Shown here in pieces: positions 522 to 50,129 of a DNA stretch of 64,000 nucleotides. Each line of letters opens with the position of its first letter. Position 1 is the stretch's first letter. The stretch comes from a bacterium (lineage in GTDB: Bacteria > Electryoneota > RPQS01 > DYHQ01), in assembly GCA_030622545.1 (NCBI GenBank), contig JAUXGA010000008.1, positions 66,321-130,320 of the forward strand. The letters are read 5' to 3'. The translations under genes were made by a program, and so were the position numbers. Under the pieces are notes generated by a model. The model saw only the letters and a list, made by a program, of their open reading frames with translations. It was not told the origin of the DNA and did no database searches.

Positions 522-1985
522 TTATTTCAACAGCATCATCTTCTTTGTCGTCATGAAATTCCCTGCCTGCAAACGGCAAAGATAAATCCCCGATGCCAAA
601 CCCGAACCGTCAAAAATAACCGCGTGACTTCCTACAGACTGAATATTATCCATGAGGGTAGCGACTTCCCGACCAAGCAAGTCGAAAACTTTCAATGACA
701 CATGTCCCGCTTTTGTCAGGTCGAAGCTGATTTGCGTCGATGGATTAAACGGATTCGGATAGTTCTGGTGCAGTACGTATTTGTCCGGAAGAGGACTTAA
801 CATTGGATCAGCCGCCAATTCCGGCCCCGTCTTCACCAGCCAGAAATCACTATCGCCCGCCCCGTAGGACCTAGTTTCCCCCCCAAGAATATAGCCGCCA
901 TCCGATGTTTGTTGAACAGAATTGCATCCATCCAAGTCGCTCCCCCCGAAGGTGCAGCTCCACTCTTCTGTACCACTGGCATCCGTCTTCACCAGCCAGA
1001 AATCTGCATCGCCCGCCCCGTACGACATGGTATACCCCCCAAGGATATAGCCGCCGCCTAACGTCTGCTGAACCGATGAGCAAACATCTTCATCGCTTCC
1101 CCCGAAGGTTGTATCCCAAAGCTGTGTGCCACTAACATCCGTCTTCACCAGCCAGAAATCATTAGAGCCCGCCCCGTAGGACATTGTTCCTCCCCCCAAG
1201 ATATAGCCACCGTCGGTGGTCTGCTGAATCGAAGTGCAAACATCATCATAGCTTCCTCCGAAGGTGCGGCTCCACTCCTCGGTGCCACTAACGTCCGTCT
1301 TCACCAGCCAGAAATCAAAATAACCCGCCCCGTAGGAGTCGGTATACCCCGCAAGGATATAGCCGCCGTCGGTGGTCTGCTGAACCGACCAGCAAATATC
1401 ATTGCTGCTTCCCCCGAAGGTGCGGCTCCACTCCTCTGTGCCACTAACATCCGTCTTCACCAGCCAGAAATCACATTCGCCCGCCCCGTAGGACCTGGCA
1501 TACCCCCCAAGGATATAGCCGCCGTCGGTGGTCTGCTGAACCGACAAACAAACATCAGAGTTGCTTCCCCCGAAGGTGCGGCTCCACTCCTCGGTGCCAC
1601 TAACGTCCGTCTTCACCAGCCAGAAATGAAGAGAGCCCGCCCCGTAGGACCTGGTCATCCCCCCAAGAATATAGCCGCCGTCGGTGGTCTGCTGAACGGA
1701 AAAGCAAACATCATCATCGCTTCCCCCGAAGGTACGACTCCAGAGGCTGTCTCCGTTCGCATCCGCCCGAACCAGCCAGAAATCACTACCGCCCACCCCG
1801 TAGGAATAGGTCTCCCCTCCAAGGATATAGCCGCCGTCGGTGGTCTGCTGAACCGAAGTGCATTCATCCCTATCGCTTCCCCCAAAGGTGTGACTCCACA
1901 AGCTGTCCGGCTGGGCAAACGCCCCCGAAACCAAGACAAGCAGAGCCATCCCCCACGCAACAAGACTAAAAATGCGCATGTTCAT
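522..1985 (-). CDS. Secreted seven-repeat (beta-propeller-like) protein with T9SS C-terminal sorting domain
   Basis: Signal peptide ending AFA|Q; seven ~52-aa repeats (FGGSxxDxCxSVQQTTDGGYILGGxTxSYGAGxxDFWLVKTDxSG); C-terminal QNYPNPFNPSTQISFDL...GLASGIYLCRLQAGNFMTTKKMMLLK. Confidence 0.9.
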   Translation of the reverse strand: MNMRIFSLVAWGMALLVLVSGAFAQPDSLWSHTFGGSDRDECTSVQQTTDGGYILGGETYSYGVGGSDFWLVRADANGDSLWSRTFGGSDDDVCFSVQQTTDGGYILGGMTRSYGAGSLHFWLVKTDVSGTEEWSRTFGGSNSDVCLSVQQTTDGGYILGGYARSYGAGECDFWLVKTDVSGTEEWSRTFGGSSNDICWSVQQTTDGGYILAGYTDSYGAGYFDFWLVKTDVSGTEEWSRTFGGSYDDVCTSIQQTTDGGYILGGGTMSYGAGSNDFWLVKTDVSGTQLWDTTFGGSDEDVCSSVQQTLGGGYILGGYTMSYGAGDADFWLVKTDASGTEEWSCTFGGSDLDGCNSVQQTSDGGYILGGETRSYGAGDSDFWLVKTGPELAADPMLSPLPDKYVLHQNYPNPFNPSTQISFDLTKAGHVSLKVFDLLGREVATLMDNIQSVGSHAVIFDGSGLASGIYLCRLQAGNFMTTKKMMLLK

Positions 1986-4186: not shown

Positions 4187-5287
4187 CTACCTCGACGCAT
4201 TCGCTCCGAAAGTAATTCCCTCCGACTCCATCCAACTGTGGAAAACAGCGTAGAAATCGCGCGTTCGTTCCAACGTCGGTCGGTCGCGGACAGCGACAAT
4301 AGCCGATGGTCCGGCAGGGCTTTGAGTCACACGGCCTAATCCCAGGAACTGACTTCTCGAACGAAAATCCGAGTCCACAAGCAGAATCGCTGTTTCGCCC
4401 CTCACAAGGAAGAGTTTGAGCTGATGTTCGATTTCGGAAAACTGCACATGGATGTCCCATCCCTGATAGCGCGCCCGGCCTTTCAAGTAGTCCTGCTTGG
4501 TCTCCATATAGTTCATCACAACCGGAGCGAAGCTCGCCCCGCCCTGACCCTGCAGCCAGCGCAGCAATCCCCCCAGAACCGCTTCATCTACGATATCATC
4601 GCCGATGCTCAAATCGTCGGACGGTTTTTTTGAATCGCTGAGGCCGGCGGGACTCTGGTATGTCTCGCCCTTGGCTAATTCCGGAAGGTTATACTCCGGC
4701 GCTTTTTCATCATGGGAAATACCAACCTGAGGCATTGCTGCAGTCGGCGCATCCGTCGAAGGACCTGTATAAGATGGTTTGGATGCATCCGGCAAATCGC
4801 GGCCTCCGCGTCCCTGATAGACCTCTCCTCGCGTCGGCAATTGCCCCGGAAGCGCCATCGGCAGATGACGTTCGCCTTCCTCGGCTTTGCGGGTAACGAT
4901 TTCCGGCAATGGCGCGGCTTCGGGTTCCATGCGTGGTTCCCAAGTTACCGGCTGGTCAAGCGCACGGTCAAGTAACCCGAATTCGGCGGGTTCGGCGGGC
5001 GTTCCGGCGACTTCGATATTCGCAGGCGCAGGCTGAGTTTCGGCGGGTTTTACCGAAATCGAGGGTGCCGGTTTCCCGGCTTTCGCGCGGCGATGGCGCG
5101 GCGGCGGGGGAGGCGGCGGAGGGGGAGGTTCGCGCCACTCGATTATCCGTTCAATGGGGATAATCAGGATCGGTATATCGGACGTAAGATTGGGCAAATC
5201 CGTCCAATCAGGAACGATAGAAAGCACCCCAAAACTCAGCACGAACGCCATCCCTCGAATCCCGATGAGAATCTGGCGTTCTTTCAT
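4187..5287 (-). CDS. TonB-like energy-transducer protein (N-terminal TM, polyproline linker, unrecognised C-terminal domain)
   Basis: N-terminal hydrophobic segment, PPPPPPPPPP linker, Pro/Ala/Glu-rich spacer; ATGA overlap with the upstream exbD-like gene. No recognisable TonB C-terminal domain. Confidence 0.6.
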   Translation of the reverse strand: MKERQILIGIRGMAFVLSFGVLSIVPDWTDLPNLTSDIPILIIPIERIIEWREPPPPPPPPPPRHRRAKAGKPAPSISVKPAETQPAPANIEVAGTPAEPAEFGLLDRALDQPVTWEPRMEPEAAPLPEIVTRKAEEGERHLPMALPGQLPTRGEVYQGRGGRDLPDASKPSYTGPSTDAPTAAMPQVGISHDEKAPEYNLPELAKGETYQSPAGLSDSKKPSDDLSIGDDIVDEAVLGGLLRWLQGQGGASFAPVVMNYMETKQDYLKGRARYQGWDIHVQFSEIEHQLKLFLVRGETAILLVDSDFRSRSQFLGLGRVTQSPAGPSAIVAVRDRPTLERTRDFYAVFHSWMESEGITFGANASR

Positions 5288-5757
5288 GGCGTTGTCCCCG
5301 CTATGTTACGCGGATTCAAGGCGATACTGACGCCGATACCGTTGCGACCGACGGCCTGCATCACCTGAATCGGCCGGTCCCAAACAGCGCCGCTGTCAGC
5401 CCGCAACAGCACACGCGCCTCCGGCTTTTGAATCTTCAGGTCAGCGAAGAGCCTGTCGCATAGCTCGAACAAGAGCGAATCTGACGCCTCGGCAGGCGCT
5501 AAAAGCTCGCCTCCCACAAAGACAGCGCCTTCACGTTCAATCTGAACCAGAAGCTCATCACCGACTTCAATCACCTTGTCTCCACCGGTGAAATCATTCG
5601 GCAGTACCAATGGTATCGTGGTCTCAGGCGTAAAAATGAGAGAAATCGCAAAGAAGAGAATCAGAATGAACGCGATGTCAATCAGGGAGGTCGTCGCTTC
5701 CGCAAATGGATTCCGAACTCGCATCCTATTTCTCCCCCGGCCCTGCCAGAAGCTCAC
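5284..5757 (-). CDS. ExbD/TolR-family biopolymer transport protein
   Basis: Single N-terminal TM (SLIDIAFILILFFAISLIF) with Asp, followed by a periplasmic domain; next to the ExbB-like gene. True start probably the internal MRVRNPF. Confidence 0.8.
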   Translation of the reverse strand: MSFWQGRGRNRMRVRNPFAEATTSLIDIAFILILFFAISLIFTPETTIPLVLPNDFTGGDKVIEVGDELLVQIEREGAVFVGGELLAPAEASDSLLFELCDRLFADLKIQKPEARVLLRADSGAVWDRPIQVMQAVGRNGIGVSIALNPRNIAGTTP

Positions 5758-6349
5758 GCATCGCGGCGACGCGAGAGATCAGGAAGTGCCGTCCGATAAT
5801 ACCGATGAGACCGACGACCAAGCCGCAGACGGTTGTCACCATCGCGACATACATGCCTCCCGCCAGACTTTGCATCGTGACATGCTCGACCAGCGTTTGC
5901 TCCCGGAAAACCTGAACCAATCCCACGACGGTTCCGAGCAATCCCGATACCGGCGCGGCGGCAATCATCATGTCAAGGAAGAGGAAGCGATTCTGAAGGC
6001 TTTCCATTTCAAAATCGACAGCGTGGCGAGGGTCGAGACCACCGCCCGTTGCGAGTTTTCGAATCGTCTGGCGAATTCCCTCTAAAAAGCCTTTCTGATG
6101 AAAGCGGATCAGGTAGTAGGCGGTGAAACCTAATCCCAAGAACAGCAGAATTGCTTGAAAGAAGTAGATCCAGACATCAAAAGCCCGAAACAGCACCACA
6201 AAAACCCCGATGCGCTCCGACATAGTCACATGACGGCCGACATCTCCGGTCTGGGCGAAGGACACACCCACATAAAACAAAGCCAAACCTGCAGCGACTA
6301 AAGCCACCTTAAGAAGTGCGCGCGAACGTTTTTCATTCCATCGAAACAT
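5726..6349 (-). CDS. MotA/TolQ/ExbB proton channel family protein
   Basis: Three TM segments; LFLDMMIAAAPVSGLLGTVVGLVQVF and GGMYVAMVTTVCGLVVGLIGIIG are typical of TolQ/ExbB. Confidence 0.88.
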   Translation of the reverse strand: MFRWNEKRSRALLKVALVAAGLALFYVGVSFAQTGDVGRHVTMSERIGVFVVLFRAFDVWIYFFQAILLFLGLGFTAYYLIRFHQKGFLEGIRQTIRKLATGGGLDPRHAVDFEMESLQNRFLFLDMMIAAAPVSGLLGTVVGLVQVFREQTLVEHVTMQSLAGGMYVAMVTTVCGLVVGLIGIIGRHFLISRVAAMRELLAGPGEK

Positions 6350-6791: not shown

Positions 6792-9700
6792 TTGGAGTCA
6801 TTGCGCACAAGAATGCCTGCACCCACGATGCTTTCGAATAAAAGCCGTTTTTCCCTTCGTTTTTTCCCACTGGCCTTTCTTCTTTTGGTCGGAAATCCAA
6901 CCATTGCGCCCGCGAAGGTTGGTTTTTACTACTCCTGTGCGGATTCGCTGACAACAAACTTCCTCGTCCGGCGACTCCCTCAAGGTCTTTCCCTCACACC
7001 CCACGCTCTACTGGAACGCCCCACTTCCAATTTCTATGTCATCGAAACCGTTATCGACAGCAGTCTGCAATATGTCATACTGCGCGAACGAATTAAAACA
7101 GACGACATGCGTCCTCCGACGGTTTTAACCTATGAGGAATACCGCGACCTGCGTTTGGCGGCGGATATCCGTCAACTGTTCCATGAAAAAACGCGCGCCG
7201 CGTTCAAATTCCAAAAAGTTGCCGCCTCAGGAGAAGGCATCGCGATTGACGTTCCCTTCCGTATTAAAAGCCGCACATTCCGCCGGATTTTCGGCGGCGA
7301 GCGCGTGGGATTGCGCGTGAGCGGCGATATCAGCATCAATGGTCATATCCGGCGGCAAAAATTTTCTCAGATTCAAACCGCCAATAATCAGAACGCTTCC
7401 ACGTCGTTCCTGATTGACCAGACTCAACGCTTTACCATCGAAGGGAAAGTCGGGGAGAAAGTCAGAGTGCGTGTGGATCAAGATTCCGAACGTCTCTTTG
7501 ATTTTCAGAACTCTATCGCTCTGACCTATACCGGCGACGAAGATGAAATTGTCCAGTCTATCCAAGCCGGGAATATTGACATGCGTCTGGGCACCAAACT
7601 CGCGACATTTTCCGGTCGCAATCAGGGTCTTTTTGGTCTAAAAACAGAAGCGAAAATCGGCGCTCTCACTCTGACCGGCATCGCCTCTCTCGAAAAAGGA
7701 CAGAAGAACAAGCAGCGTCCGAACGCCAGCGGCTCTCAGGCTCGTCCTCCGTTTTCAGAAAAAGACTACCTGCGCGGTGTCTATTTCTTTCTGAGCGATG
7801 CAGAGTATATGTTTACGGATACCGATGGCAGGGAAAAGACCTTCTGGGATTATCGCGAGAATTACCGGAACTTCGTCAATCGAACCCATGTGGCGGTGGC
7901 CGAACTCGGGCGCATTTCCTCCATTGAAGTCTATGTCTCAAGTAATACCTATTCGGGCGGGCAAGGTTCGACACCTTTGCCCGGCGTCGCCGTGTCGTGG
8001 CCATACATCGGCCAGCCCCTACTTGACGATTCCCTGATAGGAGACCATGAGCATCGCAGCGGGCAGTTCCGGCGGCTTGATTACGCGTCCGGCGAATACG
8101 ACTTCGATAGGGCTCTTGGGTTTATCCGGCTGCGGTATCCGGTTACTCAGGGAGACATTTTGGCTGTTGCCTATGCGACAGCGGCGGGTGATACATTCGG
8201 TGTCTTGGCCGCTAACCCGGACAGTCTGAGGCTTTTGCTGCTGAAACCTGAGAGTCCCCAACCGACCGATACCACATGGAATCTCATGTTCCGGCATGTC
8301 TATTCACTCGGCTCTTCAGATATAAATCCGGACAATTTCAAAATGGAAATCGTCCGTTCCGCCAGCAGCGCCAATATTCCCGAGACCGGTTTACCGGGGC
8401 TGAACGAAACCTATCTGACCACCTTCCGCTTTGACATGGAACAGGAAACAGGTGGGGGAGATCCCGACGGCAAAGTGGACAACCTGCCCGCTCTTATCCG
8501 ATACGACCGTGGTGAGGTTCATTTCCAAGACCTGACACCTTTCTGCCCGGAAGGATTCTGGGATGGCCCAAGCGGGGGAACTTTCATGACGTATCCTCTA
8601 CCGGATTCCGGCAAATACAAGCATTGCGAACTTTATACGAATACAAGGACTGTCATTCAATCTCGGAGCGCCTATTGGAGCTTCCAAACGGAATTCCGCG
8701 GCTCGCGTACTGTCTATGATTTAGGCCCTCTCGTCCTCGAAGGCTCCGAAGAAGTGATTCTGAATGGCGTCCATTTGCAGCGCGGAATCGACTACACCAT
8801 CGATTATATGTCCGGCCAGCTCCGTATTTTGAGTGAAGCGGCGAAAGCCGAAAACGCCGACCTCGAAATCCTCTACGAAAGCGGCACCGTTTTCCAGCTC
8901 GAACGCAAAAGCCTACTCGGGCTCCGGGCGGAATATGAACTATGGGAAGATTCCTACATTGGAGGGATGTGGCTCTACCTTAATGAAAAACCCCTCGAGA
9001 AGCGTGTCCGTGTGGGTTCGGAACCGGTTCGCAATACTCTCTATGACATAAATACAAAGCTGACGTTCCGTCCCCAATTCCTGACCCGCGCCGTGGATTT
9101 ATTACCCTTAGTCAACACGGAAACACCTTCTCTGGTGACATTTGATGCGGAAGTTGCCCGCGTGTATCCGAATCCGAATTCAATGGAGAATCAAGCCACG
9201 GGTGATGTGGGAGGATTGGCCTATCTGGACGATTTCGAAAGTTCCCGAAGAGCGGTTCCGCTGGGACTTTTGCGGCGACAATGGATGCTGTCTTCAATTC
9301 CTGTGGATACCGATATTGACTCCCTCCGCGGCAGGATGATTTGGTACAACCCAACGGTCAGCGGACAGGTTCCGGTTCAGGAAGTCTTCCCGGATAAAGA
9401 AGTCAATCAAAATGTCGCCAACACGCTCCAGTCTTTGAACATCACATTCCGTCCGGATTCAAGTACGGGCGACGCTACCCGCAGTTGGGGCGGAATTATG
9501 CGCTACCTCGGAGAAGCTTATGCCGACCAGACCCTTTCGAAATTCATCGAAATCTGGGTCAAATGGGACGGAAATAACGACGGGCGGTTGGTCGTTGACC
9601 TCGGACAGGTTTCCGAGGACGCCCTGCCGGATAATCAGATGAGTACCGAGGATCGTCCGGAACCGGGACAGCCGCAACCCGGCGACGCCAGTTTTGACCC

Positions 9701-12700
9701 GCGCTGGGAATATGGAAACGGCATTATTAATGGCCCTGAGGAAGACACCGGGATTGACGGCATCGCGGGACCCGCGGACTCCGCTTACTGGAACGGCTTG
9801 ACCCGACCGAAGGTCCCCTCTATGGACGACTGGAATTATACCGCCGGGACAAGCTACTACGAGAACATCAACGGCACCGAAGGAAACCTGAACGACGAGA
9901 GCGGCAACTATCCTGACACGGAAGACCTCAACAACAACCAAGTCCTCGATCTCCAGAATCACTACTATTCGTATAACTTCTGGCTAAACGATAGCTGCCA
10001 CTATATCGTGGGAGGTCAAACGAATATCTACGGTTGGCGTCTCTTCCGAATCCCTTTAGAAGAATACTCGAATACCGTCGGCAATCCTTCGTTTACGCAG
10101 ATCCGTTTTGTCCGTGCCTACCTGACCGGCTGCAGCGGAGACAGAAACGGGAACAAGAACATTAAAATCGTCCAGTTAGACATCGTTGGCAACGAATGGC
10201 AGCAAGTATTCCCGGTCGATTCCGTCGAGCGTGTCAGCGTTGCGATCATCAACAATCATGAGAATCCCGGTTATGTCAGCCCTCCGGGTGTGCAGGGAGA
10301 AATTGATCCCATCTCGGGCGTGCGTTCCAAAGAGCAGTCCCTCGTTCTCGAGATACACGAAGCGAAATCTTATTTGGATCCCGTGCTGGACGGTGGATGG
10401 ATTGCGAAGAATCTTTACACCTCGATAAACCTCCTCGAATACCGCCGCTTGAAGATGTTCATTCATGGCGGAGGAACGGATTACACCACATTCCCGGAAG
10501 GACGGCTCGAACTCATCTTCCGGCTGGGATACAGTTACGCGGACGTTTTCGATAACTACTACGAGATAAATAAAATTGTCTATCCCGGTTGGGCGGAATC
10601 GAATACGATTGATATTGCCTTAAATGACCTGACACGCCTGAAAACCCTCCGAGACGCTGATACTCTCTATTCCCCAGAATTTCCATTCTACGAGACGCTT
10701 GATTCCGTCACCACCGTCAGTATCCTCGGCAATCCCGCTCTGTCGCGTATAGGATTCTATTCATTAGGTGTCCGGATGGCGACCCGGCCTCCGGTTTATA
10801 ACGAGGAAATCTGGGTGGATGAACTCCGCCTTTCCGAAGTGTATAAAGATCCCGGAACCGCCGCGGATGTAAGTGGTCAGGTGAAACTCGCGGATTTAGC
10901 GACGATAAACGTAGGCTATGAAACTCGCGACGCTGATTTTCACAATGTAAATACGCGTATCGGTGACCAGAATACCCGTGAAACGAAGCGCGCTTCCGCA
11001 AAAATTTCTCTCCACAAGTTCTTTCTCGACCGATGGGGCTTCAATCTTCCTTTATCGCTAAATTATTCTGATTCTAAACAGACTCCAAAATATTTTCCGA
11101 ATTCGGATTTTCGAGTCAATCCTGATCACGCGCCGGACAGCATCAAATCGCTGAAAACGGATTACAGCGCTCAGATTAATTTTTCGAGGGCGGGAAGCGG
11201 GAAATATGCTCTGACGAACTACACCATAGATCGTATCACGGGCGGCTTCTCTTTTTCTCGAAGTGATGGAAGCAGTTTTCAGGAGGTTGAACGCTGGAGC
11301 GAGTCGCGAAGCGCCAACGCCGCCTATAGTTTCCCCACCAGCCGCGGCCGGGGAGTCGCGCCTCTCTTCTTCCTGCGAGGAATCCCGATGATCGGCGTTT
11401 TGGGCGACAAACGGTTCTACTATAAGCCGACCAAAATCACCACCAGCGCGGACGCCAGCGAATCCTCCAGCCATCAGGAGCAGCGCACCGGCGTCGTGCA
11501 GGATACTCGAACCCTGCGGACCAATCGAAACTTCTCGACCGGTTTTAACTTCTTCGAACCGCTGACGATGGATTATGGGCGAACCATCCGTTCGGATTTA
11601 TCCAATGGAGATTGGAAAGATTTGACCCGGCTTGATTTCGGTCGGGATTCCGACATCTCGCAGAACTTTTCATCCAATTATAATCCGACCTTCGCTTCCT
11701 GGCTGCGCTCCGATTTCAGCTATAATGCAGACTACCGCTGGGCACACAGCAATTTCGCGCAGGACAACTCACAGAGTATTTCCAGCAACCGAACCATCCG
11801 GACGGATTTCCAGATTGACCTCTTTCGGGTTTTAGGAGAGGTCAAAGAACCCTCCGCCGCATCTCCGTCAGAAGAACCATCGGAAGAGCCTTCGGAAGAA
11901 TCCTCCGGGTTTTCAGAATTTCCTTCAGGCGAGGGGTCTCCTCCGGACAGTGGAGCCGTACGCGAAGACAGCGTCCAGACTCCGAAACCTCGGGCAAAAT
12001 CGCGGGGAAGTCTTCTTGACATGCTGCTAAATCCTGTGCGAAAAATATCTCGGTCTGTCGATCCCATCAGTTTAACTTACAATCAGGGGCGCTCGCATAC
12101 TCAATCGGCGACGATAGGTCAGGCCGATTGGGGTTATCAATTCGGTTTGACACAGACTCCGAATGTCGATACGGTCGGAGGCTATACGCAGGTGCCTGCG
12201 CTTTCTAAAAACGAAGACTACGACCTGCGTTCAGGCTTCCGTATCGGTCAGAATATTCGTGTTGGACTCAGTCACGCGCTTCGCATCACATCGTCGATTT
12301 CAAATGCAAGCACCGGCTCGCGCGAAAGCACCGTCTTCTTCATGTCAAGCAAAGGAGGAGACGTCACGGCGATACCCTTCTTTGACTGGACCTTCGATTG
12401 GTCAGGCCTGTCTTCGTTTATACTCTTCCGGAAAGTGACCGAGTCAGTCAGTCTCAATAACGCTTTATCGAATCGCGTGCGAGAAAGCTGGACAGGAAGC
12501 GCCAGCCAAATCACTGGCAAGTCCTATACCCAGCAATGGAATCCCCTTATCGGGCTGAATATTCTATGGAAATATGGAATAGATTCACAAATCCGATACA
12601 GCTCCAGCAGCTCGTTTGAAGATCAAGTGCAGACGTCGACAAAGCGACGTTCGAGTGAACAGCAAATCTCGCTGACGATGGGTTATTCAATTCGCACAGG

Positions 12701-12998
12701 CTTCCGCATTCCGGTTCCCTTCCTCAACAGATTTCGACTGACAAACCAGACCAACATCTCCCTGGCCTTTGACAACCGCTCCTCTAAATCGGAATATACG
12801 CCGACCAGCAGCGGAGAATTTACGGTTCAGAGCGAGTCCAGTTCGTGGAATCTGACTCCGCGGCTAACCTATACGTTTTCCAACACCGTCAACGGACAAA
12901 TTTATATGCAGATGAGCACGAATGACGATAAGATTCCTCCGCGAAAATCACGTAGTTTCGAATTCGGAGTTCAGATCAATATTGCGATTCGCGGATAA
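6792..12998 (+). CDS. sprA: Cell-surface protein SprA/Sov, T9SS outer-membrane translocon
   Basis: 2068 aa; SprA-type features including LPLVNTETPSLVTFDAEVARVYPNPNSM...GGLAYLDDFESSRRAVPLGLLRRQWMLSS, DDWNY..YYENINGTEGN and a beta-rich C-terminus. Translation probably starts at the internal MLSNKSRFSLRFF. Confidence 0.88.
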   Translation: MESLRTRMPAPTMLSNKSRFSLRFFPLAFLLLVGNPTIAPAKVGFYYSCADSLTTNFLVRRLPQGLSLTPHALLERPTSNFYVIETVIDSSLQYVILRERIKTDDMRPPTVLTYEEYRDLRLAADIRQLFHEKTRAAFKFQKVAASGEGIAIDVPFRIKSRTFRRIFGGERVGLRVSGDISINGHIRRQKFSQIQTANNQNASTSFLIDQTQRFTIEGKVGEKVRVRVDQDSERLFDFQNSIALTYTGDEDEIVQSIQAGNIDMRLGTKLATFSGRNQGLFGLKTEAKIGALTLTGIASLEKGQKNKQRPNASGSQARPPFSEKDYLRGVYFFLSDAEYMFTDTDGREKTFWDYRENYRNFVNRTHVAVAELGRISSIEVYVSSNTYSGGQGSTPLPGVAVSWPYIGQPLLDDSLIGDHEHRSGQFRRLDYASGEYDFDRALGFIRLRYPVTQGDILAVAYATAAGDTFGVLAANPDSLRLLLLKPESPQPTDTTWNLMFRHVYSLGSSDINPDNFKMEIVRSASSANIPETGLPGLNETYLTTFRFDMEQETGGGDPDGKVDNLPALIRYDRGEVHFQDLTPFCPEGFWDGPSGGTFMTYPLPDSGKYKHCELYTNTRTVIQSRSAYWSFQTEFRGSRTVYDLGPLVLEGSEEVILNGVHLQRGIDYTIDYMSGQLRILSEAAKAENADLEILYESGTVFQLERKSLLGLRAEYELWEDSYIGGMWLYLNEKPLEKRVRVGSEPVRNTLYDINTKLTFRPQFLTRAVDLLPLVNTETPSLVTFDAEVARVYPNPNSMENQATGDVGGLAYLDDFESSRRAVPLGLLRRQWMLSSIPVDTDIDSLRGRMIWYNPTVSGQVPVQEVFPDKEVNQNVANTLQSLNITFRPDSSTGDATRSWGGIMRYLGEAYADQTLSKFIEIWVKWDGNNDGRLVVDLGQVSEDALPDNQMSTEDRPEPGQPQPGDASFDPRWEYGNGIINGPEEDTGIDGIAGPADSAYWNGLTRPKVPSMDDWNYTAGTSYYENINGTEGNLNDESGNYPDTEDLNNNQVLDLQNHYYSYNFWLNDSCHYIVGGQTNIYGWRLFRIPLEEYSNTVGNPSFTQIRFVRAYLTGCSGDRNGNKNIKIVQLDIVGNEWQQVFPVDSVERVSVAIINNHENPGYVSPPGVQGEIDPISGVRSKEQSLVLEIHEAKSYLDPVLDGGWIAKNLYTSINLLEYRRLKMFIHGGGTDYTTFPEGRLELIFRLGYSYADVFDNYYEINKIVYPGWAESNTIDIALNDLTRLKTLRDADTLYSPEFPFYETLDSVTTVSILGNPALSRIGFYSLGVRMATRPPVYNEEIWVDELRLSEVYKDPGTAADVSGQVKLADLATINVGYETRDADFHNVNTRIGDQNTRETKRASAKISLHKFFLDRWGFNLPLSLNYSDSKQTPKYFPNSDFRVNPDHAPDSIKSLKTDYSAQINFSRAGSGKYALTNYTIDRITGGFSFSRSDGSSFQEVERWSESRSANAAYSFPTSRGRGVAPLFFLRGIPMIGVLGDKRFYYKPTKITTSADASESSSHQEQRTGVVQDTRTLRTNRNFSTGFNFFEPLTMDYGRTIRSDLSNGDWKDLTRLDFGRDSDISQNFSSNYNPTFASWLRSDFSYNADYRWAHSNFAQDNSQSISSNRTIRTDFQIDLFRVLGEVKEPSAASPSEEPSEEPSEESSGFSEFPSGEGSPPDSGAVREDSVQTPKPRAKSRGSLLDMLLNPVRKISRSVDPISLTYNQGRSHTQSATIGQADWGYQFGLTQTPNVDTVGGYTQVPALSKNEDYDLRSGFRIGQNIRVGLSHALRITSSISNASTGSRESTVFFMSSKGGDVTAIPFFDWTFDWSGLSSFILFRKVTESVSLNNALSNRVRESWTGSASQITGKSYTQQWNPLIGLNILWKYGIDSQIRYSSSSSFEDQVQTSTKRRSSEQQISLTMGYSIRTGFRIPVPFLNRFRLTNQTNISLAFDNRSSKSEYTPTSSGEFTVQSESSSWNLTPRLTYTFSNTVNGQIYMQMSTNDDKIPPRKSRSFEFGVQINIAIRG

Positions 12999-13899
12999 AT
13001 TTTTCAGCGTCTTTCTCTTCGCTCTTGTCTTCGCTTTCGGGCAGTCATCGGCGTGCGCCGAGGTGCCTGAGTTTGATGACAGACACGCTTTCTTTCTATT
13101 GGAAGCGCAATGCGCCATTGGTCCGCGCAATCCCGGTTCAACGGGACACGCTCAAGGCCTGGAATTCCTGCAGCGTGAACTTAGCTTTTGGGCGGACACC
13201 GTCTTTCTGCAAACCTTCACGTACGACAGCAAAGACCGCGGGACGACACTAAGACTGTCCAACATCATCGGTCGCCTGAAACCCGAAGCACGCTCGCGGA
13301 TTCTGCTGTGCGCTCACTGGGATACCCGGCCTGTCGCTGACCACGACCCGAATCCCGAAAATTGGGATACACCGATTCTCGGAGCAAACGACGGCGCGTC
13401 CGGAGTCGCCGTTCTCTTGGAAATTGCGCGACGCTGCGCTCTCGACCCTCCCGATATCGGTGTGGACATCGTTCTTTTCGATGGCGAAGACTACGGCATT
13501 GACGGCTCGCCCACCGACTGGCTTATCGGCTCGAAATATTTCGCCCGCAATCCTGTTATCCCCCGCGTGCGCTATGGCATTCTGCTCGATTTAATCGGCG
13601 ACAGAGATTTGCATATTCCCATCGAAGATGCGTCGTTTTTCTACGCACGCGAAATCGTCGAGAAGATATGGACGACGGCTCGCGACTTAGGAATTACGAC
13701 GTTCGAGAATAGAATCGGCCAGGCGATTTATGACGATCATATTCCGCTCAACGAAGCCGGCTTACCCACCGTCGATGTTGTTGACTTCGACTATGAATTC
13801 TGGCACACCGTGCGCGATACGCCCGCCGAATGCAGTCCGAAATCCCTCGAAGACGTCGGACGCGTGATAATGCATGTCATCTATAACGAGAAACCATAG
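12922..13899 (+). CDS. Glutaminyl-peptide cyclotransferase (M28-fold), secreted
   Basis: CAHWDTRPVADHDP, GANDGASGVAVLLEIA, LFDGEDYG, and C-terminal DDHIPLNEAGLPTVDVVDFDYEFWHTVRDT match the glutaminyl cyclase pattern (DDHIPF...VWHT). ORF overlaps the 3' end of sprA; exact start uncertain. Confidence 0.85.
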   Translation: MTIRFLRENHVVSNSEFRSILRFADKFFSVFLFALVFAFGQSSACAEVPEFDDRHAFFLLEAQCAIGPRNPGSTGHAQGLEFLQRELSFWADTVFLQTFTYDSKDRGTTLRLSNIIGRLKPEARSRILLCAHWDTRPVADHDPNPENWDTPILGANDGASGVAVLLEIARRCALDPPDIGVDIVLFDGEDYGIDGSPTDWLIGSKYFARNPVIPRVRYGILLDLIGDRDLHIPIEDASFFYAREIVEKIWTTARDLGITTFENRIGQAIYDDHIPLNEAGLPTVDVVDFDYEFWHTVRDTPAECSPKSLEDVGRVIMHVIYNEKP

Positions 13900-13910: not shown

Positions 13911-15107
13911 ATGAAGAAATCAACAAATCGCCGCTCCACTCTAATGTTTGTCTTTCTTCTGAGCGCAATTGGCTTTGGTCTCTTTCTCTCGTGTTCAACA
14001 ATGGACCCTAATGGTATCATCTCTCCCCCAGACTATACCATAATAATAGAAGAAATCCCTGAAGCTCTTCCTGTAGATGTTGCAATCTATTTCCCAATCG
14101 TTATCCAACTGGAACCAAGCAATCCGGACATTGATTCGCTCTATTGTTTAATCTTTAATCCCGAAAACGAGTCTTTCCTGGATTTCTATCTTTATGACGA
14201 CGGCTCAGCTTTCGACCATCCAATGGAAAGCACTCTTTTAAGCGTGCGTTCCGGCGATAATGTACCCGGTGATAGCAGATTCACGCGGCAGATTACCGGA
14301 CAAGATTTCGAAGGTGATTTCGGCACTTACACTTTCGATTTCGTAACACCTGATGGAGATAGCTATTCAGACTCCATCGACATCCAACCTGTCGAAGCGC
14401 CCTCGTTTACAAGTGTCACACCGGTCATCTCAGAATTCCCGTCGGGCTTTGATCCCGTCGAATATGAAGTGCATATTCATAGACCCACTGCGAGTGATCG
14501 CATTGATTCGGTTTATCTTGCGCTTTGGTATTCGGGCATACCGACGAGCGATTTACGACATATTCCTTTCACTGCAAGTTTAGGCGATACTGTATGGACG
14601 TTGACCCTAACACCCGGTCATTTCTGGGGAATTCCTTCGGGTCTCTACGATTTTCAGTTTGTGCTTTGGGACAGGTTTGGTCTCTCAGCAGATACCGAGC
14701 AGCGATTTATCAGCATTGCAAACGGCCAGCCAGTCGTTTCGAATCCGGTTATGCCGGATACTATATGGCGTCCCCGGCAAGGCGAACCCAACGACACCAC
14801 CGTTATCACCGTTCAGGCCGACGACCCTGAAACGCTGCTGGACATCGCCACCGTGCGTTTCGAGGTGCGCAAAGTCTGGGAAACCGAATGGACCGGCCAC
14901 GAGGATTTCTATCTCCTCGATTTGGGAGGCCGATGGGATGATGTGGAGGGCGATGGCGTTTACAGCGTTCCGTTGGTGACAGCGTTTAGCGATTCTCTGA
15001 AAGACGATCTCTTCTATTTCCGTTTCTTTGCGATTGACTTCACGCAGGACACCAGCAACTACGTCATCGACAGCGTCCGCGTCATTGAACCCGTTGTCTT
15101 GCTATAA
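13911..15107 (+). CDS. Lipoprotein with Ig-like/all-beta repeats, unknown function
   Basis: Lipobox FLSC; preceded by gaggagg RBS; beta-rich sequence; follows the glutaminyl cyclase by 11 nt. Confidence 0.7.
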   Translation: MKKSTNRRSTLMFVFLLSAIGFGLFLSCSTMDPNGIISPPDYTIIIEEIPEALPVDVAIYFPIVIQLEPSNPDIDSLYCLIFNPENESFLDFYLYDDGSAFDHPMESTLLSVRSGDNVPGDSRFTRQITGQDFEGDFGTYTFDFVTPDGDSYSDSIDIQPVEAPSFTSVTPVISEFPSGFDPVEYEVHIHRPTASDRIDSVYLALWYSGIPTSDLRHIPFTASLGDTVWTLTLTPGHFWGIPSGLYDFQFVLWDRFGLSADTEQRFISIANGQPVVSNPVMPDTIWRPRQGEPNDTTVITVQADDPETLLDIATVRFEVRKVWETEWTGHEDFYLLDLGGRWDDVEGDGVYSVPLVTAFSDSLKDDLFYFRFFAIDFTQDTSNYVIDSVRVIEPVVLL

Positions 15108-27637: not shown

Positions 27638-27972
27638 ATTATGAATCGTTATTCGGATACGTTTAATTCACCTGTTGAGCAGAAATATTATAGTAACACG
27701 AGCGTCAGGCGCACTGATTTGAGTAAAATAAATTGCGGAAATTGAAATAATGATTGAATTAAAACCGAGTTTCTGATAGATTTATAGCAATCAACTTATA
27801 CATTGTTGCAATCTCCTCTTGGGACGTTCGTAAAGAACTCTTTTAAAGAGACATATGCGGCTCTGTACGTGTGTATACGCGGGTGCATTTCGTCCCTTGA
27901 AGAAGGGGAATGCATTTGTGTAATCTCTATCGTTATTTATGTGTTGTCCTTGCCATAGTAAGGAGACTTCCT

Positions 27973-29835
27973 ATGAGAACGCCCATGATGCGCTGGATTT
28001 TTGTTTTCACTGTTATGCTTTTTACGAGTGCTTTGACCTATGCGGGAATTGATGCGACAACCGCCCCACTAAAACCTGGGCAGGGAGAATTCGAAACTCC
28101 CCTACTTGGCAATCTGGATTGTACCAACGCGATTGCCATTTCATGCCCGGAGACTGTTTCGGGACAGACCATTGAATACCCGAACAATGTTTCTTATTGG
28201 TCGTGTGGATTCACTGATCCAGGCGGAGAAATCATCTATGAATTGACGCTCGAAACCGTCATGGATTTGACCATCACGATTCTCGAACAGAACGAAGGAT
28301 GTATTGACGTTTATTTTCTTGAACAGTGCGACGAACAACCGTGCACCTGGATTGGATCGGAAACAGGAGATGCCCGGATGATTCACGATATCGGCCCCGG
28401 CACCTTCTATGTCGTTGTCGATCGATGGATTGGCTGCAGCCCCGGGTCGTATGATTTCGAGCTTCAATTTGACTGCAATCCTCCGCCGCCTTCCTGCAAT
28501 TATATCGGCCGCAGTACAGAAAATTTAGGTCGGCTTAATTGGTACGCTGATGGAGAATGGAGTTCCGTCGACGGGCTTATCTATCAGGTATTCCGAGGCG
28601 GCTTTCTCCCGGCGGCTCCCGATGTTGTTGTCTTCAATCCGACAACCGGCGATGTCGTGCGCAGCTTTCAACTAAGCTTCACAACCGCTGCTCAGCGCGG
28701 AATCGCTGTGGATGCCCGCAATGGAAATCTATGGATCGCGGGATGGATCAATAGAATGATTTACTATGTTGACGATGCAGGCTCTCTGATCCACAGCTTT
28801 GGTCATGGGCCTCTCTATGCCGGATTAGCGTACGATCCGGACAACCAACGACTCTGGGCGGTCACAAACAACGCCCCTGATAAATATTTTGTCTATGATG
28901 TCAGCAATCCTTTGGAGCCCACTCTCCTTTGGGGACCCACACCGGTCCCTTGGCAATGCGGCGGTACGTTCTTCGGAACTAATTTCAACGGCGCCGGTCT
29001 CGAATACAGTCCTTTTTCCAACAGCGTTATCTTCATCAATCAGGATGGAGCGGCACAGGAGTGTTTCCATGATAACGGAGACGGAACACTGACGCCGATG
29101 GGCTGCTGTCAGTTGTCCCCCCTCCAGTGGCCTTGGGGTTGTGCGCTGATTGATGGTGCTTTCGGCGATCGTGGCGCTCTATTCGTCACCAGTCTCGACG
29201 AATGGCCCTTTGGACCGTGGCTGGTGGATGTGTTCGAAACCGTCTGCGATGCCATGCTTCCCGTCGAACTCTCTTCTTTCACAGCGACCGGCCGCAATGG
29301 ATACATTGACCTCGCCTGGACAACCGCCAGTGAACTTAATACGGCTCATTTCAATGTCTATCGCCGACAGACAACATCGACCTGGCGCGAAATCGCGCAG
29401 ATTCCTTCACAAGGCAACGGGACATTTATGCGCGACTATACCTACAAAGACGAAGGCGTAAGAGTAAATCAGGAGTACGAGTATTTGCTCGCGGATGTTG
29501 ACCTATCAGGACTTGAAACGCGGGCTGACAATATGATATGCCGAGCCACCGCTCTTCCGGAAGCTCAACCTACGGACTTCGCCCTCTATCAAAACTACCC
29601 CAATCCCTTCAATCCGGAAACCACCATTCGCTACGACGTGGGAAAAGCGGGACACGTGCAGTTGCAGGTCTTCGATATTACGGGAAGACTTGTTTCTACT
29701 CTTGAAAGCGGCTACGCCGCTGCAGGGTCTTATTCGGTTGTTTTCGATGGGAGTGAGTTGCCGTCGGGAATTTATCTGGTGGTTTTAGATGCGGAACGCT
29801 TCCGCGCCGTAACGAAAATTGTTTTAGCAAAATAG
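27973..29835 (+). CDS. Secreted protein with T9SS C-terminal sorting domain
   Basis: Signal peptide MRTPMMRWIFVFTVMLFTSALTYAG; beta-propeller-like region; FALYQNYPNPFNPETTIRYDV...LPSGIYLVVLDAERFRAVTKIVLAK. Confidence 0.85.
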   Translation: MRTPMMRWIFVFTVMLFTSALTYAGIDATTAPLKPGQGEFETPLLGNLDCTNAIAISCPETVSGQTIEYPNNVSYWSCGFTDPGGEIIYELTLETVMDLTITILEQNEGCIDVYFLEQCDEQPCTWIGSETGDARMIHDIGPGTFYVVVDRWIGCSPGSYDFELQFDCNPPPPSCNYIGRSTENLGRLNWYADGEWSSVDGLIYQVFRGGFLPAAPDVVVFNPTTGDVVRSFQLSFTTAAQRGIAVDARNGNLWIAGWINRMIYYVDDAGSLIHSFGHGPLYAGLAYDPDNQRLWAVTNNAPDKYFVYDVSNPLEPTLLWGPTPVPWQCGGTFFGTNFNGAGLEYSPFSNSVIFINQDGAAQECFHDNGDGTLTPMGCCQLSPLQWPWGCALIDGAFGDRGALFVTSLDEWPFGPWLVDVFETVCDAMLPVELSSFTATGRNGYIDLAWTTASELNTAHFNVYRRQTTSTWREIAQIPSQGNGTFMRDYTYKDEGVRVNQEYEYLLADVDLSGLETRADNMICRATALPEAQPTDFALYQNYPNPFNPETTIRYDVGKAGHVQLQVFDITGRLVSTLESGYAAAGSYSVVFDGSELPSGIYLVVLDAERFRAVTKIVLAK

Positions 29836-38358: not shown

Positions 38359-39798
38359 TTACGGCGCGACTAATTTAAACGCTTCGCCGGCGATGGCGAT
38401 AATTGGTGACCAGTAAACGCCCATCACGACGATAGGGACGACCAGAAACAAGAGGAGAAGTTTTGTCCCGACTCCTTCAGGGATGGGTTCGGATTTCAGC
38501 GGGTCGCGCAGGAACATCTCGCGGACAATCTTGACATAATACCAAAGCGACACGCCGCTGTTTAAAATCCCGATGATTGCCAGAGGAATCATATGCTGCT
38601 GAATCAGCGCGGCAAACAAGTAAAACTTACCGATGAATCCCGCGAGAGGCGGCAGACCCACCAGTGAGAAAAGAAAAATCGCAAAGACGACAGCGGTGAA
38701 CGGCGCGCGGTATCCTAAGCCTCGAAAGTCGCGCAATGTTTCACTGCCTTCCTTGCGCGCGACAATATCCACCGCGAAAAAAGCGCCGAAATTCATGAAG
38801 AGATAGACAACAAGGTAGAAGAGAACCGCCTGAAATCCTAAGAAACACGCCGCCGCGAAACCCATCAGAATATATCCGGCGTGCGCAATCGATGAATACG
38901 CGAGCAGGCGTTTCAGGTTCTGCTGACGAATCGCCGCTAAATTCCCCAGTGTCATCGTCGCGGCGCTGGCGAGCGTGAACATCACCGGCCAGTCCCAGCC
39001 CGCTTCCCAACCTTCGGGAAGCAACGTCACCGTCAGACGAAGCAGTGCAGCGAGTCCGGCCGCTTTCGGTGCGACGGAGAAGAAAGCCGTTATCGGCGTT
39101 GGCGCGCCTTCGTAAACATCCGGGCACCAGAAGTGAAACGGCACCATCGCTATTTTGTAGCCCAGCCCGGCCATGATAAAGAGCATCGCAAGGAAAAGCG
39201 TTATCGGCGATGTGCTTTCCTGCAGGAAATGATTTCGAATCATTTCGAAATCCGTCGAGCCGGTCAATCCATAGAGCAGCGACATTCCGAAAAGCATGAC
39301 GCCAGTGGAAACCGCTCCGTACAGGACATATTTCAGCGCGGCTTCTCCCGACGAGCGTTTGCCTCGATACACCCCCGCCAGAATATAGCTGGGAATCGAG
39401 ACCATTTCAATCGCTAAAAACAGGAGAATTAAATCGTGCGCACCCGAGAGCAGCGACATCCCCAAAGCGGAACCGACTAAAAGTAAGTAGTATTCCGCGT
39501 CGGTTTTGAAGGTGAAGAGGCTGAAAAGCACCGCCACCATCGTCGCCAAACAGAAAAAAACCTTGAAGAACAGCGCGAACGGATCATGCGCGTAAGTCGC
39601 AAAGATGGTCTGTGACGTTCCCGGCCAAGCGGATATGGCGGCGATAGCCGCCGCGCCTAAAATCACAAGCGCAACAATTCCCGCGCCGCGCCGCAAAGGC
39701 CGAATGACGTCGACAATCATCAGCACCACAAAGCCGATAATCAAAATCAGCTCGGGTGAAAAGTAGACAAGATGCGTGAGTGGAAATGGCATAGTCAA
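38359..39798 (-). CDS. nuoN: NADH-quinone oxidoreductase subunit N
   Basis: Proton-pump antiporter-like subunit; YVLYGAVSTGVMLFGMSLLYGLTGST, KIAMVPFHFWCPDVYEGAPTPITAF. Confidence 0.92.
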   Translation of the reverse strand: MTMPFPLTHLVYFSPELILIIGFVVLMIVDVIRPLRRGAGIVALVILGAAAIAAISAWPGTSQTIFATYAHDPFALFFKVFFCLATMVAVLFSLFTFKTDAEYYLLLVGSALGMSLLSGAHDLILLFLAIEMVSIPSYILAGVYRGKRSSGEAALKYVLYGAVSTGVMLFGMSLLYGLTGSTDFEMIRNHFLQESTSPITLFLAMLFIMAGLGYKIAMVPFHFWCPDVYEGAPTPITAFFSVAPKAAGLAALLRLTVTLLPEGWEAGWDWPVMFTLASAATMTLGNLAAIRQQNLKRLLAYSSIAHAGYILMGFAAACFLGFQAVLFYLVVYLFMNFGAFFAVDIVARKEGSETLRDFRGLGYRAPFTAVVFAIFLFSLVGLPPLAGFIGKFYLFAALIQQHMIPLAIIGILNSGVSLWYYVKIVREMFLRDPLKSEPIPEGVGTKLLLLFLVVPIVVMGVYWSPIIAIAGEAFKLVAP

Positions 39799-39809
39799 GT
39801 ATTTAAAAT

Positions 39810-40304
39810 TTACTTCTCGCCGGTTTCACTGTGCGAGAAACGAAACTTTGAAATATCTGGATAAGTAACTTTGACGTTTGTCCGTTCGAAAACCAAGCGC
39901 GAGGCTTCCTCTCCCGGATAGTTACCAAAGACTTTGACACTTTTAATCCCGGAGTTCGCAATCATCCGCGCGCAAATCGTACAGGGAAAGACCGTGACGT
40001 AAATGTCAGCGCCGTCAACAGAAATGCCGTGACGGGCAGCTTGTAGGAGCGCATTCTGTTCGGCATGGAGGCAGTAGCAAAGTTCGAGGCGCTGACCGGA
40101 AGGAATATTGAGTTTGTCGCGCTCGCAGCCACCTAAATCTTCCGGGTGCGGATGACCTGCCGGTGGTCCGTTGTAGCCCGTGCACAGAATCTGATTATTC
40201 TTGACAATGAGCGCGCCGACTTTGCGGCGCAGGCAAACCGAACGCTCTTTGATGAGCTGCGCGATGCCGTAGAAATATTCGTCCCAGGAAATGCGGTCGG
40301 TCAT
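39810..40304 (-). CDS. dCMP deaminase / ComEB-like cytidine deaminase family
   Basis: CHAEQNALLQAA and TVFPCTICARMI zinc-binding motifs; start taken at MTDRISWDEYF. Confidence 0.9.
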   Translation of the reverse strand: MTDRISWDEYFYGIAQLIKERSVCLRRKVGALIVKNNQILCTGYNGPPAGHPHPEDLGGCERDKLNIPSGQRLELCYCLHAEQNALLQAARHGISVDGADIYVTVFPCTICARMIANSGIKSVKVFGNYPGEEASRLVFERTNVKVTYPDISKFRFSHSETGEK

Positions 40305-40365
40305 GTTATTTATCGTCCGTCGGAATCTCGCCATTGCGCGTCTGGAGACACACAACGGCGAATGA

Positions 40366-41937
40366 TTACATCCCCGCTGCACGCGCGCCGAGCATGACGA
40401 CTTCGTTCAAGTAGTTCAAGGTAGCGTCCATCATGTGCAGGACGGGTTGCGGAAAGACGCCGAGGAAAATGATAATCGCGGCCAGTGGAATCAGCGTAAA
40501 CAACTCGCGGCCATTAATATCCGACAACGTTTTCCAACGGTCAGGCAGCGTGCCGAGGAACATGCGTTGAATCGCCCAGAGAATATAGCCTGCTGTAATA
40601 ATAATCCCGAAAACGGAAATAATCGTGAATGTCTGCCACGTGGGGAAGGCACCGACGAACGAAAGCGCTTCGGAAATAAACGCCGATAATCCCGGCAGAC
40701 CCATCGCCGCGAAAAATGCCAGCGCAAAAATACCGCTGTAAACCGGCATCTGATTCGCCAATCCGCCAAAGCCAAGCTTGCCCCGCAGTTCCACTTCCGG
40801 ATAATCTTTGGGATAGACGAGGAAACGGTGATGCGCGCGGTCGTAAATCACTCCGACGAGCAAAAAGAGCATGGCTGTCACGCATCCATGATTGAACATC
40901 TGGAACACCGCGCCGTTGATGCCTGCCGGTGTAAAGCTCGCCATTCCCAGCATGACGATTCCCATGTGCGAAATCGAGCTGTACGCGACCAGCTTCTTTA
41001 AGTCTTTCTGCGCCAGCGCGCAGAATGCTCCATAGATGATATTCACCATCCCCATGAACGCAATGAACCACGCGAATTGCATCGTCGTATCGGGCAGCAT
41101 CGGGTAGCTGATGCGCAGGATGCCGTAGGTTCCCATCTTCAACAAAACTCCGGCCAGAATCACGGAAATCGCCGTCGGAGCTTCGACGTGTGCGTCCGGA
41201 AGCCACGTATGGAAGGGGACCATCGGAATCTTAATCGCGAATCCGATAAAGAGTCCGAAGAACATCAGCGTGCGAACGGTGCCGCCTTTAAGCCAATCTC
41301 CCTGCAGACCCTGATTCATCATGTCCAGCATGTTGAAGGTGTGAGCGCCGGTGACAGGGTCGCGGGTGTTCAAGTAGAACGCGATTATCACCAGCAACAT
41401 CAGCAGCGACCCGAAGAAGGTATAGAGGAAGAACTTTATCGCTGCATATTCCCGCCGCGGGCCGCCCCAGACACCGATGAGGAAATACATCGGCAGAAGC
41501 ATAATCTCCCAGAAGACATAAAAGAGGAAGAAATCGAGAGCGACAAAGGTTCCTATCATGCCCGCTTCCAACAGGAGAAACATGATAAAGTAACCCTTGA
41601 CCGCTTTCGTGATGCCCCACGATGCGAAAATGCACAGGAAACAGAGGAGTGCTGTCAGCCCTATCATCGGCATCGAGAGTCCGTCCGCACCGACGAAATA
41701 CTCGATATTGAACGCGGGAATCCATGATACATGATCAATGAATTGAAAACCGCCTTCCTGATTGATTCCTGTCTTCGATGGATCGAAATTCACCCAGGTG
41801 ACAGCGCCGATAATCAGCACCAATCCCGTGAAAAAAGCCGACGTCCATCGGATCAGATTGTGCCGGTCACGCGGAATAAAGAGAAGAATCACGATGCCAA
41901 CCACCGGCAAAAAAGTCATGTAAGTTAGAGGACTCAT
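40366..41937 (-). CDS. nuoM: NADH-quinone oxidoreductase subunit M
   Basis: GPRREYAAIKFFLYTFFGSLLML, KIPMVPFHTWLPDAHVEAPTAISVILAGVLLKMGTYGI. Confidence 0.95.
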   Translation of the reverse strand: MSPLTYMTFLPVVGIVILLFIPRDRHNLIRWTSAFFTGLVLIIGAVTWVNFDPSKTGINQEGGFQFIDHVSWIPAFNIEYFVGADGLSMPMIGLTALLCFLCIFASWGITKAVKGYFIMFLLLEAGMIGTFVALDFFLFYVFWEIMLLPMYFLIGVWGGPRREYAAIKFFLYTFFGSLLMLLVIIAFYLNTRDPVTGAHTFNMLDMMNQGLQGDWLKGGTVRTLMFFGLFIGFAIKIPMVPFHTWLPDAHVEAPTAISVILAGVLLKMGTYGILRISYPMLPDTTMQFAWFIAFMGMVNIIYGAFCALAQKDLKKLVAYSSISHMGIVMLGMASFTPAGINGAVFQMFNHGCVTAMLFLLVGVIYDRAHHRFLVYPKDYPEVELRGKLGFGGLANQMPVYSGIFALAFFAAMGLPGLSAFISEALSFVGAFPTWQTFTIISVFGIIITAGYILWAIQRMFLGTLPDRWKTLSDINGRELFTLIPLAAIIIFLGVFPQPVLHMMDATLNYLNEVVMLGARAAGM

Positions 41938-41961
41938 TTTCGTCGCAACTATTTTAACGAA

Positions 41962-44130: not shown

Positions 44131-44168
44131 AAGCGCTTATAAGTCAGCTATCAACAATCAAAGAAATA

Positions 44169-44996: not shown

Positions 44997-45181
44997 AAAA
45001 GTTCTTTCCTCCTGGAACCAAGCCAGGGTTCAGAGCTGAACCCGGAATTCTGCCTGCAAAATGCAGACAGATCGCTTGCCGAGTAGTCGGCCAGTGTCAC
45101 AGAAAGAACTTTATTCACAATTGCTTTTGGATTTCTTTTTGTGTAATTTATCTTATCATTTAAAAAAGGATGCCCAAAACC

Positions 45182-45844: not shown

Positions 45845-45909
45845 GTCTTCCCAAAATCCGAACCTCCCTAAGGACAGACATCCTCCTTTTCGCCCGAGCT
45901 CGGTCAGCT

Positions 45910-47082: not shown

Positions 47083-47086
47083 ACTA

Positions 47087-48499: not shown

Positions 48500-48524
48500 A
48501 AGATGCTCGTTCGTGTGTCGAATC

Positions 48525-49517: not shown

Positions 49518-49540
49518 AAATGACTCAAGAATGAACGAAA

Positions 49541-50125: not shown

Positions 50126-50129
50126 GTTA

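What the first reader, a model, noticed from the sequence alone, without database searches (positions are those of the whole stretch)
6792..13899. T9SS translocon gene sprA overlaps a glutaminyl cyclase gene
The cyclase ORF begins inside the 3' end of sprA, which suggests translational coupling. In Bacteroidota, glutaminyl cyclase converts N-terminal Gln of exported proteins to pyroglutamate and is linked to the T9SS-bearing envelope. Physical coupling to the translocon itself would be a strong genomic hint that the two act together in this lineage.
Basis: partly seen in the sequence, partly recalled or inferred. Interest (0 to 1): 0.68.

Follow-up and report, generated by a model that had tools for sequence, protein, structure and literature searches.

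The report
Glutaminyl cyclase inside T9SS operon
In several little-known bacterial phyla, the gene for an enzyme that caps the ends of exported proteins sits directly behind the gene for the type IX secretion pore, which suggests, without proving it, that exporting and capping proteins were ancestrally made as one unit.

Summary
sprA (6792-12998, TIGR04189 825 bits) is overlapped by an M28 gene that is a bacteroidal type II glutaminyl cyclase (QC): closest solved relatives are P. gingivalis/T. forsythia QC, the AlphaFold model matches them at TM 0.94-0.96, and the QC-diagnostic residues are present. The true overlap is probably 17 nt (TTG 12982, conserved in four genera), not 77 nt (ATG 12922). 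The pair is found in 13 of about 26 Ca. Electryoneota genomes with both genes, and in KSB1, Calditrichota, Neomarinimicrobiota, Krumholzibacteriota and others, usually within -20..+30 nt. It often heads a cluster sprA-QC-[prmA/ppx]-lipoprotein-propeller with T9SS-like C-terminus-PorV family. Genomes lacking this QC usually carry an unrelated type I QC elsewhere (9 of 12; 0 of 27 with type II). Signal-peptide cleavage exposes Gln about fivefold above background where a QC exists, and not in a QC-less genome (0/21). However, two near-complete genomes have SprA and no QC, QC exists without SprA, and Gln is not confined to T9SS cargo. So QC is most likely a general periplasmic capping enzyme co-expressed with the translocon, not a required T9SS part.

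The parts
6792..12998 (+). sprA/sov, T9SS outer-membrane translocon; likely start ATG 6828 with signal peptide MLSNKSRFSLRFFPLAFLLLVGNPTIAPA|K
   Evidence: TIGR04189 825 bits (cut-off 200), SprA_N 142 bits; signal peptide
12982..13899 (+). type II (M28-fold) glutaminyl cyclase gene, preferred start TTG 12982; the ORF as first listed begins at ATG 12922
   Evidence: M28 Pfam hit, PDB QC relatives, model and fold search, conserved start
12982..12998 (+). 17-nt overlap: the TTG start of QC lies within the codons for the last residues (IAIRG-stop) of SprA
   Evidence: same 17-nt overlap in G003, G008, G010
13390..13392 (+). codon of Zn-ligand Asp (D157 of the 325-aa ORF; PgQC D149), followed by Gly as in PgQC
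13486..13491 (+). codons of catalytic Glu and bacteroidal-specific Zn-ligand Asp (E189, D190; HsQC E201, PgQC D183)
13801..13806 (+). codons of active-site Trp and Zn-ligand His (W294, H295; PgQC W298, H299)
13911..15107 (+). third gene of the cluster: putative lipoprotein with no Pfam family; a homologue follows QC (or follows ppx/prmA) in Electryoneota, KSB1, Calditrichota and Neomarinimicrobiota

Best explanation
The locus is the head of an ancestral T9SS translocon operon of FCB-group bacteria: sprA, then a type II QC, then accessory genes. SprA is the outer-membrane channel. QC is a periplasmic (in many relatives apparently lipid-anchored) single-zinc enzyme that converts the N-terminal Gln exposed by signal peptidase I into pyroglutamate, on SPI substrates in general: translocon parts, T9SS cargo and other periplasmic proteins. 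Placing QC within or a few nucleotides after the sprA stop lets its translation follow sprA's, so capping capacity rises when the cell invests in export. Shown computationally: QC identity, conserved linkage, replacement by the other QC type, and Gln enrichment at +1. Inferred: translational coupling, catalytic activity, and the benefit (protease protection, as shown in P. gingivalis, PMC10653852).
For: QC identity: best PDB matches are bacteroidal QCs (3gux 1.4e-67, 6qro TfQC 1.2e-61); AF2 pLDDT 95.9 and Foldseek TM 0.96 to TfQC, 0.94 to PgQC; D157-G158, E189, D190, D223, D272, W294-H295 match the residues that separate QCs from aminopeptidases. Operon: sprA directly upstream on the same strand in 13 Electryoneota genomes, in all three other-phylum genomes of the first sample that have both genes (G039, G044, G046), and in about 37 of 80 named QC loci; gap median +2 nt, 31 of 41 within -20..+30; the cluster continues to lipoprotein-propeller-PorV in several phyla. 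Function: an unrelated type I QC (PF05096) is present in 9 of 12 Electryoneota lacking type II and 0 of 27 having it (Fisher 1e-6); over 291 genomes 82 have type II, 36 type I, 1 both, about 10 expected. In G004 the QC is cleanly absent between sprA and ppx, and a signal-peptide-bearing type I QC lies 134 kb away. Gln at +1: 42/160 with type II, 8/42 with type I, 0/21 with neither, background about 5%.
Against: G014 and G041 (100% and 98% complete) have SprA and neither QC type; 12 Electryoneota genomes keep QC and sprA apart; QC occurs in genomes without SprA. Gln at +1 is only about a quarter of predicted SPI substrates, well below Bacteroidetes (about 71%, PMC5837995). The signal-peptide caller is home-made and was not validated on a strong positive control; G014 is a single QC-less genome. 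Fisher tests ignore shared ancestry. Coupling and activity are not measured.
Confidence: 0.68

Rival explanations
1. QC is a dedicated T9SS component: it acts at or binds the SprA translocon and modifies T9SS cargo in particular.
For: Deep conservation of the sprA-QC pair and of a larger T9SS cluster with PorV family and a propeller with T9SS-like C-terminus; Gln at +1 slightly commoner in CTD-bearing proteins (28/88 vs 35/157).
Against: The difference is not significant (z about 1.6); T9SS without QC in G014 and G041; QC without T9SS in other genomes; type I QC genomes keep it away from sprA; P. gingivalis data argue against a sorting role (PMC5837995).
Confidence: 0.17
2. The linkage is a passive relic: two envelope genes that happened to be adjacent in an FCB ancestor and were carried along without functional meaning.
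For: Linkage is broken in about half of Electryoneota without loss of either gene; the Bacteroidota/Ignavibacteria-named QC loci mostly show no sprA nearby; P. gingivalis QC is in a hemG operon (PMC10653852); the cluster also holds housekeeping genes prmA and ppx.
Against: The pair persists with tight spacing across several phyla while most flanking genes change.
Confidence: 0.12
3. The protein is an ordinary M28 aminopeptidase.
For: Pfam calls it Peptidase_M28; NCBIfam gives only sub-threshold peptidase hits; active-site residues alone do not strictly separate QCs and aminopeptidases (PMC5837995).
Against: Asp at the third Zn position, Gly after the Zn Asp, Trp before the Zn His, structure and sequence nearest to proven QCs; near-perfect anti-correlation with the unrelated type I QC.
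Confidence: 0.03

Closest known systems
Porphyromonas gingivalis QC (PG_2157) and Tannerella forsythia QC, bacteroidal type II glutaminyl cyclases
   Same: Fold (TM 0.94-0.96), single-zinc site with Asp in place of HsQC Glu202, RPxAD loop, W-H motif at the catalytic site, export signal
   Different: About 37-41% identity; the insertion loop before the W-H motif is missing; PgQC is a lipoprotein in an operon with hemG, whereas here QC follows sprA; lipoprotein status of the window protein is unclear (SSAC lipobox-like sequence)
T9SS translocon SprA/Sov of Flavobacterium johnsoniae and P. gingivalis
   Same: TIGR04189 match far over the cut-off, SprA_N domain, about 2,050 aa, signal peptide
   Different: Host is Ca. 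Electryoneota, outside Bacteroidota; gene neighbours differ (QC, lipoprotein)
Bacteroidetes Q-rule (Bochtler et al. 2018, PMC5837995)
   Same: Gln is the commonest residue after predicted SPI cleavage sites; [quoted passage not shown]
   Different: Only about 25% Gln here, against about 71% in Bacteroidetes; linkage of QC to sprA is not described in the papers found

Membership tests
bacteroidal type II glutaminyl cyclase | Closest relatives are proven QCs by sequence and fold | tested here: met
bacteroidal type II glutaminyl cyclase | Zn triad Asp-Asp-His with Asp replacing HsQC Glu202; catalytic Glu and Asp (HsQC E201, D248); Trp before Zn His; Gly after Zn Asp | tested here: met
   D157-G158, E189-D190, D223, W294-H295; all invariant in the 24-row alignment A1
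bacteroidal type II glutaminyl cyclase | Export to the periplasm | tested here: met
   Signal peptide predicted by own script; lipoprotein or soluble form unresolved
bacteroidal type II glutaminyl cyclase | Cyclization of N-terminal Gln, no aminopeptidase activity | not testable with these tools
   needs assay; indirect support from mutual exclusion with type I QC
T9SS translocon SprA/Sov | TIGR04189 above cut-off, near full length | tested here: met
   825 bits vs 200; SprA_N; N- and C-terminal stretches also matched
T9SS translocon SprA/Sov | Genome has T9SS cargo with type A sorting domains | tested here: met
   104 TIGR04183 matches in G000
M28 aminopeptidase | Two-metal site; Asn/Asp after the bridging Asp; Tyr before the Zn His | tested here: not met
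   Gly158 and Trp294 instead, and Asp190 as in bacteroidal QCs; metal content itself not measured
Q-rule organism | Majority of SPI substrates expose Gln at +1 | tested here: inconclusive
   26% by own caller, fivefold above background; caller probably misplaces some sites
translationally coupled gene pair | Overlap or near-zero gap conserved among relatives | tested here: met
   median +2 nt, 15 of 41 overlapping; coupling itself not measured

The most novel reading that the evidence does not exclude
N-terminal pyroglutamate capping was an original, co-expressed part of the type IX secretion module in the FCB ancestor, and Bacteroidota later moved the QC gene away and extended capping to most exported proteins (the Q-rule).
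Probability: 0.3. Interest if true: 0.75.

Novelty: new variant of a known kind. Interest (0 to 1): 0.57.

Why it matters
Earlier work noted that QC and T9SS co-occur but found no mechanistic link in P. gingivalis. A sprA-QC pair kept in several phyla is new genomic evidence on that question and gives a testable ancestral arrangement. The repeated absence of the linked QC together with an unrelated QC elsewhere in the genome suggests the activity, not the protein, is what these cells need. It also adds T9SS with abundant cargo outside Bacteroidota.

Tried and rejected
Using a named locus as the centre of a genome search was not accepted; the phylum of G039 holds one genome only, so QC exclusion could not be replicated phylum-wide there. 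First reading of G004 as 'QC-less' was wrong: it has a type I QC. First assignment of the host to Zixibacteria was wrong: G032 equals Ca. Hatepunaea meridiana, Ca. Electryoneota. I considered that contig breaks explain the unlinked cases: true for G034 (19-nt contig overlap joins sprA to QC), unresolved for G001, not so for families f3 and f5, where QC lies within contigs beside other genes. No paper describing a sprA-QC operon was found in the held library; bioRxiv and subscription papers were not searched.

Full report
What is there. The window carries a complete sprA (6792-12998 +; TIGR04189 825 bits against a cut-off of 200, SprA_N 142 bits) and, overlapping its 3' end in another frame, an ORF of 325 aa (12922-13899 +) that Pfam assigns to Peptidase_M28. 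The host genome is Ca. Electryoneota of the FCB group: genome G032, in the same phylum as the window's genome G000, is the record of Ca. Hatepunaea meridiana. It has 104 matches to the T9SS type A sorting domain, three of them found in this window (522-1985 -, 27910-29835 +, 56697-58454 +). So this is a cell with a working-looking T9SS outside Bacteroidota.

The start. The 77-nt overlap depends on ATG 12922. Relatives argue against that start: in G003 and G010 the QC frame is open only from 20 nt before the sprA stop, and in G000, G003, G008 and G010 a TTG 17 nt from the end of sprA gives a good signal peptide. I take TTG 12982 as the start. Elsewhere the gap varies but stays small: median +2 nt, 31 of 41 linked loci within -20..+30 nt, 15 overlapping by 1 to 26 nt.

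QC or peptidase. The nearest solved structures are bacteroidal QCs. The AlphaFold model (24-row alignment, pLDDT 95.9) superposes on T. forsythia QC at TM 0.96, B. thetaiotaomicron QC 0.96-0.97 and P. gingivalis QC 0.94. The features that PMC7948796 gives as separating bacteroidal QCs from aminopeptidases are met: Asp190 in place of HsGlu202, Gly158 after the Zn Asp157, Trp294 before the Zn His295, catalytic Glu189 and Asp223. The loop inserted before the Trp-His motif in Bacteroidia enzymes is absent here (alignment). Activity is inferred, not shown.

The linkage. Among Electryoneota genomes with both genes, sprA and QC are adjacent in G000, G002, G003, G005, G008, G010, G016, G017, G022, G025, G028, G031 and G034 (G034 joined through a 19-nt contig overlap), unresolved in G001, and apart in twelve others, mainly families f3 and f5. 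Outside the phylum the three genomes of the sample with both genes (G039, G044, G046) are all linked. Among 80 named QC loci about 37 have sprA immediately upstream on the same strand, in records labelled KSB1, Calditrichota/Calditrichaeota, Neomarinimicrobiota/Marinimicrobia, Krumholzibacteriota and Zixibacteria; those labelled Ignavibacteria, Kryptonia, Poribacteria, Armatimonadetes or Fibrobacteres do not. Two Bacteroidota-labelled records (L093, L110) are linked, but record labels are submitters' names and sometimes wrong. Because that list was the best 80 of at least 586 relatives and contigs are often short, 37/80 is not an unbiased rate.

A cluster, not only a pair. The window's third gene (13911-15107, putative lipoprotein) has homologues at the same place in own-order relatives and in Calditrichota. 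With small models built here, the order sprA - QC - (prmA and/or ppx, variable) - lipoprotein - propeller - PorV/PorQ family recurs in Electryoneota f2, KSB1, Calditrichota and Neomarinimicrobiota. The propeller protein matches Sortilin-Vps10/BNR with a T9SS-type or FlgD-Ig C-terminus, and the last gene matches PorV_fam, below its cut-off. The lipoprotein matches outside Electryoneota and Calditrichota are weak (29-138 bits) and rest on position as much as on score. Other window neighbours, including the ExbB/ExbD-like genes upstream, are not conserved.

Replacement of the QC. Twelve Electryoneota genomes lack the type II QC. Nine of them carry a strong match to the unrelated five-bladed type I QC (PF05096, E < 1e-70); none of the 27 type II genomes does (Fisher 1e-6). 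In G004 the order is sprA-ppx-lipoprotein-propeller-PorV with QC cleanly missing, and the type I QC, with a signal peptide, lies 134 kb away. A SprA tree does not unite the type I genomes: G003 with the linked type II QC is nested among them, and G030/G033 in f5 are separate, so there were at least two and probably more replacements (one node there has no support). Over 291 genomes, 82 have type II, 36 type I and one both, about 10 expected. Complementarity of the two types was already reported within Bacteroidetes (PMC5837995: 574 and 507 species, 63 with both), so this extends a known pattern. The tests treat genomes as independent, which they are not.

Substrates. With a home-made signal-peptide caller that does not reward any +1 residue (it only penalises Pro there), Gln at +1 was found in 42/160 (26%) predicted SPI substrates of five type II samples, 8/42 (19%) in type I genome G004 and 0/21 in G014, which has neither QC (strict threshold; at the looser threshold 61/242, 9/54, 4/44; background about 5%). 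Within type II samples Gln is not clearly commoner in proteins with a T9SS sorting domain (28/88) than in others (35/157). This is weaker than the Q-rule of Bacteroidetes. The caller was not validated on a strong positive control: the Ignavibacteria/Bacteroidota-named loci gave only 22 substrates, 27% with Gln.

Reading. QC is most likely a general periplasmic N-terminal capping enzyme whose gene was placed early behind the translocon gene so that both are made together. SprA without either QC type in G014 and G041 indicates that T9SS does not need it. What selection keeps the pair together is not shown. I found no description of a sprA-QC operon in the held literature.

Noticed in passing
window 38359-51338: A NADH:quinone oxidoreductase (nuo) gene run on the - strand (antiporter-like subunits, NADHdh, 49 kDa subunit) contains glycosyltransferase and polysaccharide deacetylase genes (44169-47082).
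   Followed up: no
window 5284-6349: An ExbB/MotA-like and an ExbD-like gene lie divergently upstream of sprA; no homologues were found beside sprA in the relatives examined.
   Followed up: partly
window 522-1985, 27910-29835, 56697-58454: Three T9SS cargo genes with type A sorting domains; two have Gln directly after the predicted signal peptide (QPDSLW, QLSGPL).
   Followed up: partly
G014 (C38) and G041: Near-complete genomes with SprA but neither type I nor type II QC; useful natural QC-less T9SS cases.
   Followed up: partly
L101, L103, L108, L116, L134, L138, L139, L140: In many Neomarinimicrobiota and Calditrichota loci the linked QC looks like a lipoprotein (Cys shortly before the xVPxFD start of the mature enzyme); the window's SSAC-AEVPEF may be a degenerate lipobox.
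   Followed up: partly
L070: A 3.4-kb contig deposited as Actinomycetota carries sprA-QC; probably a misbinned contig.
   Followed up: no
window 13911-15107: Putative lipoprotein family without any Pfam match at E up to 1 that travels with sprA-QC or sprA-ppx; candidate uncharacterised T9SS accessory protein.
   Followed up: partly
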